From assembly GCF_013394795.1 (NCBI RefSeq), contig NZ_JABXYU010000001.1, positions 1,674,001 to 1,738,000 on the forward strand: a DNA stretch of 64,000 nucleotides, given 5' to 3'. Origin of the DNA: Leptotrichia sp. oral taxon 223. Lineage in GTDB: Bacteria; Fusobacteriota; Fusobacteriia; Fusobacteriales; Leptotrichiaceae. Both the position numbers and the translations under genes were made by a program. The notes under the pieces were generated by a model. It was not told the origin of the DNA. It saw nothing but the letters and a program-made list of their open reading frames with translations, and made no database searches. This document shows, piece by piece, positions 40,618-55,484 of the stretch; positions within the stretch are counted from its first letter, which is position 1, and every line of letters begins with the position of its first letter.

Positions 40618-41634
40618 TTAAAAATCACTTTTTAAAATTTCCCCTTTTCTCAAATCACTTCTCATTTTTTGAATAATATCATCCATTTCATCCAGTTTTT
40701 TCAAAATTTTCTTTTCTTCAGGGCTTGTTGTAATAATTTTACTGATTCCTCCATTTTTTATTATAATTCGTTTGTCTGCTATTAGTGCCAATGTTGGGTC
40801 GTGTGTTGCCATTAATACGATTTTGTCAGATGAAACAAGTAATTCCAAGGCTTTTTTCCTGTCAATTCCTGCATTTTCGATTTCGTCAATTAGGACAATT
40901 GGAGATGAACTTAAAATAGCTGTGTCGGCAATCATCAAAGCACGGGATTGTCCACCGCTTAGGGCTGTGATTGCAGTAGTTAAGTCAAATTGCTCTCCAG
41001 CCAGATTGTTTGCAGCAGTAATGATTTTTTCCACAGTTTCGTCAATGTTTTCAATCATTCGGCTTTGAGCGTGCAGTTCCAGAAATTCCTTTACTGATAA
41101 GTCCATAACGAAATTCATGTTTTGTGATAATTGTGCAACTAGTTTGTTGTTTGAGGAATAACGCCATTTTTTGTCTGGAAGTTCACCGTTTATAAGTATT
41201 TGACGCTGTGTTGGAGTATCTTTCTGGGCAGTCCATTCGATGTCGGCAAGAAGTCTTGATTTTCCAGAGCCTGTAGGCCCAACAATGGAAATAATTTCTG
41301 ATTTATGAATATCAAGTCGCTCAAATCCCTCTTTATTCCCAGATTTATCTTGCCCAGCGACAATTGTAAGCATATCAATCGAATTTTCCTCTTCCATTCC
41401 CAAAAAAAGTTTCATCTGTTCAATGTAGTCAACAAGGCTTTCTTCAATTTTTTCCACATCCAGTGCAAAGTCTTCGATTTTATCTTCTGCAAAAGTTACG
41501 ATAAATTCGTGAAATGTCTTATCCTGAAAAGTTTCCACAGGCAAGTGGTTTTCAGTAAAAAAGTTTTCTGCAAAGGGATATTTATTGCTAAGTTCACTAA
41601 TAGTCAATTTATTTATTAAATCGTTATTTTTCAT
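40618..41634 (-). CDS. ABC-type ATPase with N-terminal DUF1858-like domain
   Basis: 338 residues, soluble. Residues about 5-70 (LTISELSNKYPFAENFFTEN) resemble the DUF1858/ScdA_N helical domain. The ATPase follows: Walker A in IVGPTGSGKSRLLADIEW near 120, signature in TALSGGQSRALMIAD, Walker B in SPIVLIDEIENAGID, and His in VLMATHDPTLAL. There is no transmembrane segment and no permease gene nearby. It is last in a minus-strand cassette with a GTPase and a signal-less binding-protein homologue, which points to a cytosolic role such as metal or cofactor handling rather than transport. AAGGAAAAAAT precedes the ATG. Function unknown. Confidence 0.83.
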   Translation of the reverse strand: MKNNDLINKLTISELSNKYPFAENFFTENHLPVETFQDKTFHEFIVTFAEDKIEDFALDVEKIEESLVDYIEQMKLFLGMEEENSIDMLTIVAGQDKSGNKEGFERLDIHKSEIISIVGPTGSGKSRLLADIEWTAQKDTPTQRQILINGELPDKKWRYSSNNKLVAQLSQNMNFVMDLSVKEFLELHAQSRMIENIDETVEKIITAANNLAGEQFDLTTAITALSGGQSRALMIADTAILSSSPIVLIDEIENAGIDRKKALELLVSSDKIVLMATHDPTLALIADKRIIIKNGGISKIITTSPEEKKILKKLDEMDDIIQKMRSDLRKGEILKSDF

Positions 41635-41669: not shown

Positions 41670-42362
41670 TTATTGCTGTAAATTCATTTTTCGAACATTA
41701 CCCATTTGGTATTTTTCACCAATTCTCTTTTCTCCTAAGCAGTAAGAACAAAGGGCTGATGGCATTGGAAATCTAAGTTCCATTCCTTGAACGCTGTCTA
41801 TTTCCAGTTCTTTCTCATAAAGAAGTGTACTTAATTCGTACGCTCCCTGTCCAGTAAGCCCGTTAACGTGCATTGTTACAGCTTTTGGATTTACAGAGTT
41901 CACACGTGAGGCAAAAACTTCACGTTCAGCTTGTGAAACAATATCTCCTTTTGTAATAATCACAATATCAGCGGCTTTTAATAATGGCCCAATCTTTTTA
42001 GGCGTATTAATTCCTGATAAATTGTCGATTACACAGACTCCCTTAATGTCCTTGATATATGGCGAACATCTGTTGCAAAGTCCTGCCGATTCTGTAATTA
42101 AAATTGAAAGCTCGAGGCTGTTTCCCCATTGCACGACTTCCTCGATATTTGATACGAAGAAATGGTCTGGGCATAAAGCTCCTGAAATTCCTTTTTTTAC
42201 TGGGATTCCTGCTTTTGCGTACAATTTGTCATCATCTGTGTAAAGACAGTCAAATTTTACTACTCCAACTGACATTCCTTGTGATTTTAAGGCTTCTACT
42301 GTTTTTAGAATAACGCTTGTTTTTCCTGATGATGGTGGGCCTGAAAATATTATTAAATTCAT
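41670..42362 (-). CDS. P-loop GTPase with Cys motifs (HypB/CobW-like)
   Basis: 230 residues. Walker A is IIFSGPPSSGKTSVILK at the N-terminus, LITESAGLCNRCSPYIKD carries a CxxC, VVIITKGDIVSQAERE is the guanine-specificity-like (N/T)KxD, and a second CxxC is in SALCSYCLGEKRIG. GTPases of this kind (HypB, UreG, CobW) deliver metal during enzyme maturation, so a metal-chaperone role is plausible but unproven. It lies between the binding-protein homologue (30 bases upstream) and the ATPase (35 bases downstream). GGAGAT precedes the ATG. Confidence 0.84.
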   Translation of the reverse strand: MNLIIFSGPPSSGKTSVILKTVEALKSQGMSVGVVKFDCLYTDDDKLYAKAGIPVKKGISGALCPDHFFVSNIEEVVQWGNSLELSILITESAGLCNRCSPYIKDIKGVCVIDNLSGINTPKKIGPLLKAADIVIITKGDIVSQAEREVFASRVNSVNPKAVTMHVNGLTGQGAYELSTLLYEKELEIDSVQGMELRFPMPSALCSYCLGEKRIGEKYQMGNVRKMNLQQ

Positions 42363-42392: not shown

Positions 42393-43619
42393 TTATTGTG
42401 CAAGGCTTTTTTGTACATCATTATTAAATTCTTCTTCACATTCACGAATAATTTTCCCAATATCATGGCTATAGATATAATCCCAGCCAATCCATTTAAA
42501 ATTCTGATGTTCTTCTAAATGGTTATCCACATTTGGATTTGTTGACGGGAATTTTCCATTTGCAGAAAAAATTGTTCCAATTTCATTTGACATAAATAAG
42601 TCCATAAATGGCTTGATTTTATCTGCCTTAGATTTTTTTGTAATCATAAATATTGGGCTTAGTAAAGCTCCATCTTTTGGCCATACAGCCTCCAAATCTC
42701 CTGTTCTGTCAATCATCTGCGAAAAGAAGTATGGAATAATGCTGACAGCAGGGGCTTCTGGTGTTCGAGTTCTGGCTTTTACCATTTGAGCTGGATGCAG
42801 GCTCTTTTTGTATGAACGTGCCAGTTTATGTATCCCATCCATTCCGAAATCTTTGTAAAGATTTGCAAGAAGGGCATTAAACAAGTCCAAATCAGCCATT
42901 GGCAATGCAACTGAGTCTTCAAATTCTTCATTTAACAAGTCTGCCCAAGTTTCTGGTACTTTTCTGTCACCTAAAGAAGTTTTGTTTACTAAAAATATTG
43001 CTGGCACGACTCCCATTATTGCGTAACGCTTTTTAGGATCCCGCAAGTCAATAGTTTCGTTGCAGAAATCTTTATTCATATTTTCAAGGTGTGTTTCAAA
43101 AATACCATTTTCCATATATTGTCCCATCAAATTCTTATCAAAAAACAGCTCAAATCCAGCCGAAAGCAATATATCCGAAACTTTATCAGGATTACCTGTC
43201 TTAACTTTTTCTACAACCCAGTCGAGTCCTAAATTTGCTGATTTCAGAGTATACGAAATAGTATAATCATTTTTTTCATTTTGCTCATTTACCCAGTCTT
43301 TTATACCTTCTAAAAGTGGTATTCTGATAGGGCAAGGCAGAACTCCTTCAATTATCAAGTCACTATTTTCATCAGCTTTGCTTTCATCCAGTGAAACATC
43401 AATATCTGCATCTTTTTTTAAAAATGTTTCCAGCTTTTCAACAAACAGTTTCTGATTAATTTTTTTTGACATAAGTGCCATTCTTAACTTAATATTTTTC
43501 CCCATAACCTCAAGCATCTGTTTATTTTTCAATTGTTCAAATCCATTTGCAATAAAAAAATCCAAAGCTTCAGGATATTTATTTATAATTTCATAAAGTG
43601 TATCGTCTAAACTAAACAT
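42393..43619 (-). CDS. Substrate-binding-protein homologue without signal peptide
   Basis: 408 residues. The N-terminal 70 residues (LDDTLYEIINKYPEALDFFIANGFEQL) match the DUF1858-like domain also found on the ATPase of this cassette. The rest is a type II periplasmic-binding-protein fold: GVLPCPIRIPLLEGIKDW, MGVVPAIFLVNKTSLG, KVPETWADLLNEEFEDSVALP and GALLSPIFMITKKSKADKIKPF, as in iron-binding proteins. No signal peptide or lipobox exists, so it is cytoplasmic, which is odd for the fold. AAGGAG lies 7 bases before the ATG. A terminator-like hairpin sits in its leader (43651-43697). Confidence 0.84.
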   Translation of the reverse strand: MFSLDDTLYEIINKYPEALDFFIANGFEQLKNKQMLEVMGKNIKLRMALMSKKINQKLFVEKLETFLKKDADIDVSLDESKADENSDLIIEGVLPCPIRIPLLEGIKDWVNEQNEKNDYTISYTLKSANLGLDWVVEKVKTGNPDKVSDILLSAGFELFFDKNLMGQYMENGIFETHLENMNKDFCNETIDLRDPKKRYAIMGVVPAIFLVNKTSLGDRKVPETWADLLNEEFEDSVALPMADLDLFNALLANLYKDFGMDGIHKLARSYKKSLHPAQMVKARTRTPEAPAVSIIPYFFSQMIDRTGDLEAVWPKDGALLSPIFMITKKSKADKIKPFMDLFMSNEIGTIFSANGKFPSTNPNVDNHLEEHQNFKWIGWDYIYSHDIGKIIRECEEEFNNDVQKSLAQ

Positions 43620-43650
43620 ATTAATTTTTCTCCTTGATCTTAAATATTAA

Positions 43651-43738
43651 AAAAAGAGTCTTGTTTGGGAAAATAAAAATATTTTCTGACTCTTTTTAAT
43701 AAGTTTTGTAAAATTGTCCAGCGCAATAGATTATAGCA
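43651..43738 (-). promoter_or_regulatory. Promoter and leader terminator upstream of the cassette
   Basis: On the minus strand an extended -10 (TGCTATAAT, 43738-43730) would start RNA near 43723. After about 25 bases a hairpin forms: AAAAAGAGTC (43697-43688) with GACTCTTTTT (43660-43651), ending in a run of T. The binding-protein gene starts 30 bases further on. This looks like a leader terminator able to control the operon by attenuation, or else a free small RNA. No known riboswitch is recognised. Confidence 0.55.
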
Positions 43739-43796
43739 TAAAAAAAATTATAAAAGTGTAATGTGTGTTACGAAAATAAATAAGAAATATTACATA

Positions 43797-55274: not shown

Positions 55275-55484
55275 TTTTAAAATATTTTTTATTTTAAAAA
55301 ACAGATTAATAAACCTAATAACATTTTTATTAAAATATATATAGATTAAATAAAAAACAAAATTACTATGGATATTGAAATAAAGATTGTAAAGGTATGT
55401 TTAGCTGTAGGGCTTATTCCTTATATTGTGTATGTGAGGGCATATTGAAGAAGATTAAAAATATCAAAACGAGGAGGAAAAAAT

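What the first reader, a model, noticed from the sequence alone, without database searches (positions are those of the whole stretch)
43620..43738. Terminator inside the leader of the permease-less cassette
An extended -10 (43738-43730) is followed after about 25 transcribed bases by an intrinsic-terminator hairpin (43697-43651) with a T-run, only 31 bases before the first gene's start codon. Most transcripts should stop there unless a signal prevents it. No known riboswitch fits the short leader, so a protein- or metal-controlled attenuator, or a small RNA, is possible.
Basis: partly seen in the sequence, partly recalled or inferred. Interest (0 to 1): 0.52.

Follow-up and report, generated by a model that had tools for sequence, protein, structure and literature searches.

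The report
Nitric-oxide-type promoter with weak leader hairpin

Summary
The main control element lies just upstream and was missed: GTAACACACATTAC (43771-43758), one mismatch from the published HcpR2 operator GTAACnnnnGTTAC and centred 41.5 bases before the predicted start, the classic position for a CRP/FNR-family activator. The same box, with a -10 20-23 bases downstream, precedes this cassette in 53 of 53 Fusobacteriota genomes that carry it, and an unbiased half-site ranking recovers it upstream of the cassette in other phyla. The window's genome has one CRP-family gene, an HcpR2 type, and no Hcp.

The hairpin occurs in 7 of 13 congeneric genomes and in no other genus examined. Its stem is weaker than the better gene-end terminators of the window, and I found no sensor, antiterminator or conserved leader peptide. 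Best reading: the cassette is switched on at initiation by HcpR2 (NO inferred), and the hairpin at most trims read-through and leaves a ~75-nt RNA. A metal-controlled attenuator is not supported. The link between HcpR2 and the cassette appears unreported in my searches. All evidence is comparative; there are no expression data.

The parts
43758..43771 (-). HcpR2-type operator GTAACACACATTAC (1 mismatch to GTAACnnnnGTTAC), centre 43764.5 = -41.5
   Evidence: published motif seen in PMC1274295 passages
43730..43738 (-). extended -10 TGC-TATAAT, 22 nt from the operator
43722..43724 (-). predicted transcription start (about 43723)
   Evidence: inferred from the -10 position; not measured
43688..43720 (-). 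early transcribed segment TGGACAATTTTACAAAACTTATTAAAAAGAGTC, identical in G000, G009, G010
43651..43697 (-). terminator-like hairpin AAAAAGAGTC / GACTCTTTTT
43649..43655 (-). T7 run after the hairpin
43630..43635 (-). ribosome-binding site AAGGAG
42393..43619 (-). gene 1: DUF1858 + SBP_bac_6; no N-terminal signal helix in the model, SBP part folds like ferric-binding proteins
41670..42362 (-). gene 2: CobW/HypB/UreG-like GTPase with 7 invariant cysteines in 16 sequences
40618..41634 (-). gene 3: ABC-type ATPase

Best explanation
The region is the promoter and leader of a cassette activated by an HcpR2-type CRP/FNR regulator. Shown: the operator sits 41.5 bp upstream of the predicted start, one CRP-family gene with the HcpR2 recognition residues is in the genome, and the arrangement is conserved. 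Inferred: NO-loaded haem-HcpR2 binds the box, contacts RNA polymerase as a class II activator, replaces the missing -35 and switches on the DUF1858-SBP / GTPase / ATPase genes. The hairpin is a clade-specific, weak terminator-like structure in the 5' UTR. At most it ends a fraction of transcripts, leaving a ~75-nt RNA, and it is not the main sensor.
For: Composite pattern GTAAY-N4-RTTAC-N21-23-TATAAT: 1 hit in the whole own genome, this promoter; 9 hits in 13 genus genomes, 7 at the cassette, against 0 for the reversed control; 25 versus 7 in 33 family genomes. Box present in 53 of 53 Fusobacteriota cassette leaders: 52 plus G091; 38 exact, 5 with 1, 9 with 2 and 1 with 3 mismatches. -10 profile over gaps 10-39: 33 of 51 have 5-6 of 6 matches at gap 22, next best 11 at gap 17. 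Unbiased ranking of 1024 half-sites in 80 named loci: GTAAC first with 33, GTTGT second with 20, then TTTTT with 8. G000's single CRP-family protein matches P. gingivalis HcpR 9DAY at 1.2e-19 and 1o5l at 2.8e-26; all of the 30 best homologues carry Arg-Pro in the recognition helix, the HcpR2 signature. hcpR is divergently adjacent to the cassette in 14 of 53 genomes. Co-occurrence in 33 family genomes: 21 both, 10 neither, 1 and 1. Cassette next to hcp and/or an hcpR-like gene in Treponema, Clostridiales, Cloacimonadota and others.
Against: No expression, binding or TSS data. The window's box has one mismatch, and the cassette boxes of this genus are all degenerate (1-3 mismatches in 13 of 13). 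In one search boxes with mismatches were chosen partly by their -10, which favours gaps 19-25 for those rows; exact boxes are hardly affected. NO as signal is inferred from the family. 14 of 64 genomes with an HcpR2-like protein lack the cassette and 3 of 53 cassette genomes lack a strong HcpR2 hit (the p-value there is not corrected for phylogeny). Only 33 of 80 named loci carry the exact box. The weak-hairpin claim rests on energies, which predict terminator efficiency poorly.
Confidence: 0.75

Rival explanations
1. One reading: a true attenuator in which a metal, protein or other signal prevents termination at the hairpin.
For: Hairpin plus U-run in 7 of 7 leaders of one group of congeners although the loop has diverged; pair 4 of the stem is T-A, T-G or C-G in different species; a 33-nt segment before and into the stem is identical in three species.
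Against: Absent or different in 6 of 13 congeners and in all other genera examined; weak stem; MAFFT alignment gives no consensus structure, a hand alignment gives one 6-bp stem; no Rfam match at gathering score; pair 5 is broken (C-A) in two species.
Confidence: 0.12
2. The leader makes an HcpR2-activated small RNA: unpaired conserved 5' segment plus terminator, with read-through giving the mRNA.
For: The 5' segment is the most conserved part in G000, G009 and G010; a second HcpR2-type promoter in 10 of 13 genomes is followed by no clear gene but, in 9 of them, by 137-165 nt ending in a strong terminator hairpin.
Against: No RNA data; an exact 12-nt complement of the 5' segment occurs only once elsewhere in G000, and no conserved target was found.
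Confidence: 0.18
3. The hairpin has no regulatory role, or only stabilises the 5' end of the mRNA; it is a chance structure kept by descent.
For: z -0.72 for the whole leader; about 7% of intergenic T-runs have as strong a stem; not present in G002, G003 and G004.
Against: Stem ends and U-run kept in 7 species while the loop changed length and sequence.
Confidence: 0.3
4. The box is bound by another regulator (for example the DtxR/MntR-like protein), not by HcpR2.
For: A second exact box lies upstream of the DtxR-like gene in 10 of 13 genomes.
Against: Box, recognition residues, hcpR adjacency, hcp promoters with the same box, and co-occurrence all point to HcpR2; the second box also has a -10 at gap 22-23.
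Confidence: 0.05

Closest known systems
HcpR2 regulon (Rodionov et al. 2005, PMC1274295)
   Same: Operator GTAACnnnnGTTAC; CRP/FNR regulator with Pro at position 181; predicted response to nitrogen oxides.
   Different: That paper lists only hcp for Fusobacterium nucleatum (passage seen); here the target is a three-gene cassette, and the window's genome has no Hcp.
Class II CRP/FNR-dependent promoters (recalled from general knowledge)
   Same: Activator site centred at -41.5 with a good -10 and no -35.
   Different: Activation not measured here.
Intrinsic-terminator attenuators (recalled from general knowledge)
   Same: Promoter, short leader, hairpin, U-run, then gene.
   Different: Weak stem, no sensor, no antiterminator found, clade-restricted.
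SnoA RNA at the Bacteroides hcpR-hcp locus (PMC13370916, outline and sections 7 and 8 read)
   Same: A non-coding RNA in the HcpR network.
   Different: SnoA is antisense to the hcp promoter, and its level did not depend on hcpR; here the leader RNA would be sense and start at an HcpR2-type promoter.

Membership tests
HcpR2 regulon | operator GTAACnnnnGTTAC upstream | tested here: met
   1 mismatch in the window; 38 of 53 Fusobacteriota cassette leaders exact
HcpR2 regulon | genome encodes an HcpR2-type regulator (Arg-Pro in the recognition helix) | tested here: met
   L156 is the only CRP-family protein found in G000
HcpR2 regulon | conserved operator-promoter geometry across genomes | tested here: met
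   gap 20-23 in 53 of 53; 22 in 37 of the 52
HcpR2 regulon | haem- and NO-dependent activation by HcpR | not testable with these tools
   reported for P. gingivalis HcpR (PMC12750200 passage)
Intrinsic terminator | stable G+C-rich stem directly followed by a U-run | tested here: inconclusive
   3 G-C pairs, -6.8 kcal/mol without the A/U part, T7
Intrinsic terminator | RNA 3' ends at the U-run | not testable with these tools
   no transcript data
Riboswitch or described leader RNA | match to a curated RNA family | tested here: not met
   no leader match at gathering score; the laxer E-value search was not run
Ligand- or protein-controlled attenuator | mutually exclusive antiterminator structure | tested here: inconclusive
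   only minimum-energy and centroid folds were viewed
Leader-peptide attenuator | conserved short reading frame in the leader | tested here: not met
   NTG near the start in 6 of 7 leaders, lost in G008; no ribosome site before it; lengths differ (sequences, read by eye)

The most novel reading that the evidence does not exclude
A widespread but unstudied cytosolic machine (ferric-binding-protein-like domain fused to DUF1858, a seven-cysteine HypB-like GTPase and an ABC-type ATPase, no permease) is a core output of the NO sensor HcpR2 and repairs or remetallates nitrosylated metal centres. In Leptotrichia it acts without Hcp, together with HcpR2-started small RNAs: the leader RNA, and a second terminator-ended RNA between bioY and the mntR-like gene.
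Probability: 0.2. Interest if true: 0.75.

Novelty: new member of a known kind. Interest (0 to 1): 0.47.

Why it matters
It gives an uncharacterised cassette, found in Fusobacteriota, Clostridia, Bacteroidota, Spirochaetes and others, a predicted signal and regulator. It also suggests what HcpR2 does in genomes without Hcp. Oral and gut anaerobes meet host NO and nitrite, so the prediction can be tested directly by nitrite or NO induction and hcpR deletion. The hairpin itself matters less.

Tried and rejected
Metal riboswitch: no Rfam match in the leader at gathering score. Leader peptide: start lost in one of seven species and no ribosome site (sequences, read by eye). Dispersed repeat or mobile element as source of the leader: in a 13-genome search the leader has one copy in G000; further weak matches in G001, G004, G008, G009 and G011 are short. 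Base-pairing targets of the 5' segment: exact 12-mer search gave 14 hits in 7 of 13 genomes, including the leaders themselves. Consensus structure: MAFFT alignment A2 gave none; my hand alignment gave one 6-bp stem with z about -17.6, a figure that leans on the hand alignment and on shared descent. Metal-regulator (MntR-type) control of the box: not supported. The DUF1858 literature search showed nothing on this cassette in its listing. Papers: PMC1274295, passages; PMC13370916, outline and sections 7 and 8; PMC12915319, passages; PMC12750200, passages; the rest only as search listings.

Full report
What is there. On the minus strand the leader reads: operator-like GTAACACACATTAC at 43771-43758, 22 nt, extended -10 TGC-TATAAT at 43738-43730, predicted start about 43723, about 25 nt, inverted repeat AAAAAGAGTC/GACTCTTTTT at 43697-43651 with a T7 run, ribosome site AAGGAG at 43635-43630, ATG at 43619. 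The three genes behind it are DUF1858-SBP_bac_6, a CobW/HypB/UreG-like GTPase and an ABC-type ATPase.

The promoter. Rodionov et al. 2005 give GTAACnnnnGTTAC as the HcpR2 operator, with Pro at position 181 of the regulator as its correlate, and list only hcp as target in Fusobacterium nucleatum (passages). The window box has one mismatch and its centre falls at -41.5 of the predicted start. A composite pattern (GTAAY-N4-RTTAC, 21-23 nt, TATAAT) has a single hit in the 2.58-Mb own genome, this promoter. In 13 congeneric genomes it has 9 hits, 7 of them at the cassette, and the reversed control has none; in 33 family genomes it has 25 against 7. In one search, 57 of 96 order-level genomes have any match to gene 1 and 53 have the cassette protein itself (G021 split on two contigs; the weak matches in G032, G064, G065 and G067 were set aside). 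All 53 have a box: 52 and G091 (38 exact, 5 with one, 9 with two, 1 with three mismatches), with a -10 20-23 nt downstream. The -10 profile over gaps 10-39 peaks at 22 (33 of 51 with 5-6 matches; next 11 at gap 17). For boxes with mismatches the choice of box used the -10 score, so those rows are not independent evidence.

Beyond the phylum. 80 named loci (254 relatives found, best 80 kept; two of them, L185 and L187, are the same records as G011 and G008) carry gene 1, and nearly all carry genes 2 and 3 behind it. Ranking all 1024 palindromic half-sites with a 4-nt spacer in the 250 nt upstream puts GTAAC first (33 of 80), GTTGT second (20) and TTTTT third with 8. With the post hoc variants GTTGY/TTGCA (22) and GTATC/GTTAC (6), 61 of 80 have an HcpR2-like box. 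The cassette lies beside hcp and/or an hcpR-like gene in several of these loci, for example L246 and L249.

The regulator. Every genome of the genus has one cNMP-domain protein (13 of 13). The one of G000 (L156) is 78% identical to that of G003, matches PDB 1o5l (2.8e-26) and 9DAY (1.2e-19), the latter being P. gingivalis HcpR (passage). The 30 best homologues all have Arg-Pro in the recognition helix. hcpR is divergently adjacent to the cassette in 14 of 53 genomes (coordinates). Over 96 genomes HcpR2-like protein and cassette are both present in 50, cassette only 3, regulator only 14, neither 29; in the family 21, 1, 1, 10 (hand-entered; Fisher p not corrected for phylogeny). Hcp is absent from 10 of 13 genus genomes including G000, so in these genomes the cassette is the best-supported target of HcpR2.

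The hairpin. The whole-leader fold is not better than shuffles (z -0.72). The stem abutting the T-run is: 0 of 60 shuffles as good in G000; in the other six species (G010, G009, G001, G006, G011, G008) 6, 0, 2, 16, 2 and 6 of 60. Among 958 T5+ runs of the window it ranks 81st. Seven of 13 genus genomes have it. G002, G003 and G004 have 57-69-nt leaders without it. G005 and G012 have a different stem with no U-run directly behind it, and G007 has none of note. Outside the genus, none of the 39 leaders has one. Across the seven, GAG and CTCTTTTT are invariant, pair 4 is T-A, T-G or C-G, and pair 5 is C-G, T-G or broken. This is thin covariation. MAFFT gives no consensus structure; a hand alignment gives one stem. 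A 33-nt segment, 43720-43688, is identical in G000, G009 and G010 while the loop differs, which could mark a seed or a promoter-proximal constraint.

Mechanism. I commit to activation at initiation: haem-HcpR2, presumably NO-loaded, binds at -41.5 and recruits polymerase to a promoter that lacks a -35. The hairpin then acts, if at all, as a constant partial terminator. Shown: box, geometry, regulator, conservation. Inferred: NO, activation, partial termination.

The cassette. The AlphaFold model of gene 1 (mean pLDDT 84) resembles periplasmic ferric-binding and related SBPs, yet it begins with DUF1858 and has no signal helix. Gene 2 resembles HypB and UreG and has seven invariant cysteines in 16 sequences. 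A role in handling iron or other metals under nitrosative stress is a reasonable guess, not a result.

Novelty. I found no paper that joins this cassette to HcpR in eight full-text searches, judged from listings and the passages named above; subscription papers and regulon databases were not searchable. The leader is a new member of a known regulon. The hairpin is ordinary unless transcript data say otherwise.

Noticed in passing
L037:1967-1980 (G000:C1:893348-893361), and L041, L042, L044, L047, L050, L052, L053, L320, L321: A second exact HcpR2-type box with a -10 at 22-23 nt lies upstream of the DtxR/MntR-like gene (next to bioY in most) in 10 of 13 genus genomes. In 9 of them it is followed by 137-165 nt starting GGAGA and ending in a strong terminator hairpin whose stem sequence differs between species: a candidate HcpR2-activated small RNA, or the relic of a lost gene. 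In G000 the -10 is degenerate and no such hairpin was found.
   Followed up: partly
window 55387-55452 (+): S4-Fusobacteriales ribosomal protein leader (Rfam RF03133), the only Rfam match in the window at gathering score.
   Followed up: no
L192-L202 and related loci, upstream of gene 1: GTTGTNNNNACAAC palindrome in place of GTAACNNNNGTTAC (20 of 80 loci), possibly the operator of HcpR2 variants with another residue at position 181.
   Followed up: partly
window 41670-42362 (-): The GTPase gene is far more conserved than its neighbours (mean column identity 79% over 16 sequences from several phyla, against 57% for gene 1 over 19 and 67% for gene 3 over 16).
   Followed up: no
window 43693 (+ strand reading of the hairpin): The hairpin is also terminator-like on the plus strand (-8.3 kcal/mol before T5), so it could stop antisense transcription towards the promoter.
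   Followed up: no
L050, L052, L053, L321: The region between the second box and the mntR-like gene is identical or nearly so in congeners whose cassette gene 1 differs strongly (G002 = G003; G005 = G007; G002 and G005 differ little), which suggests recombination.
   Followed up: no
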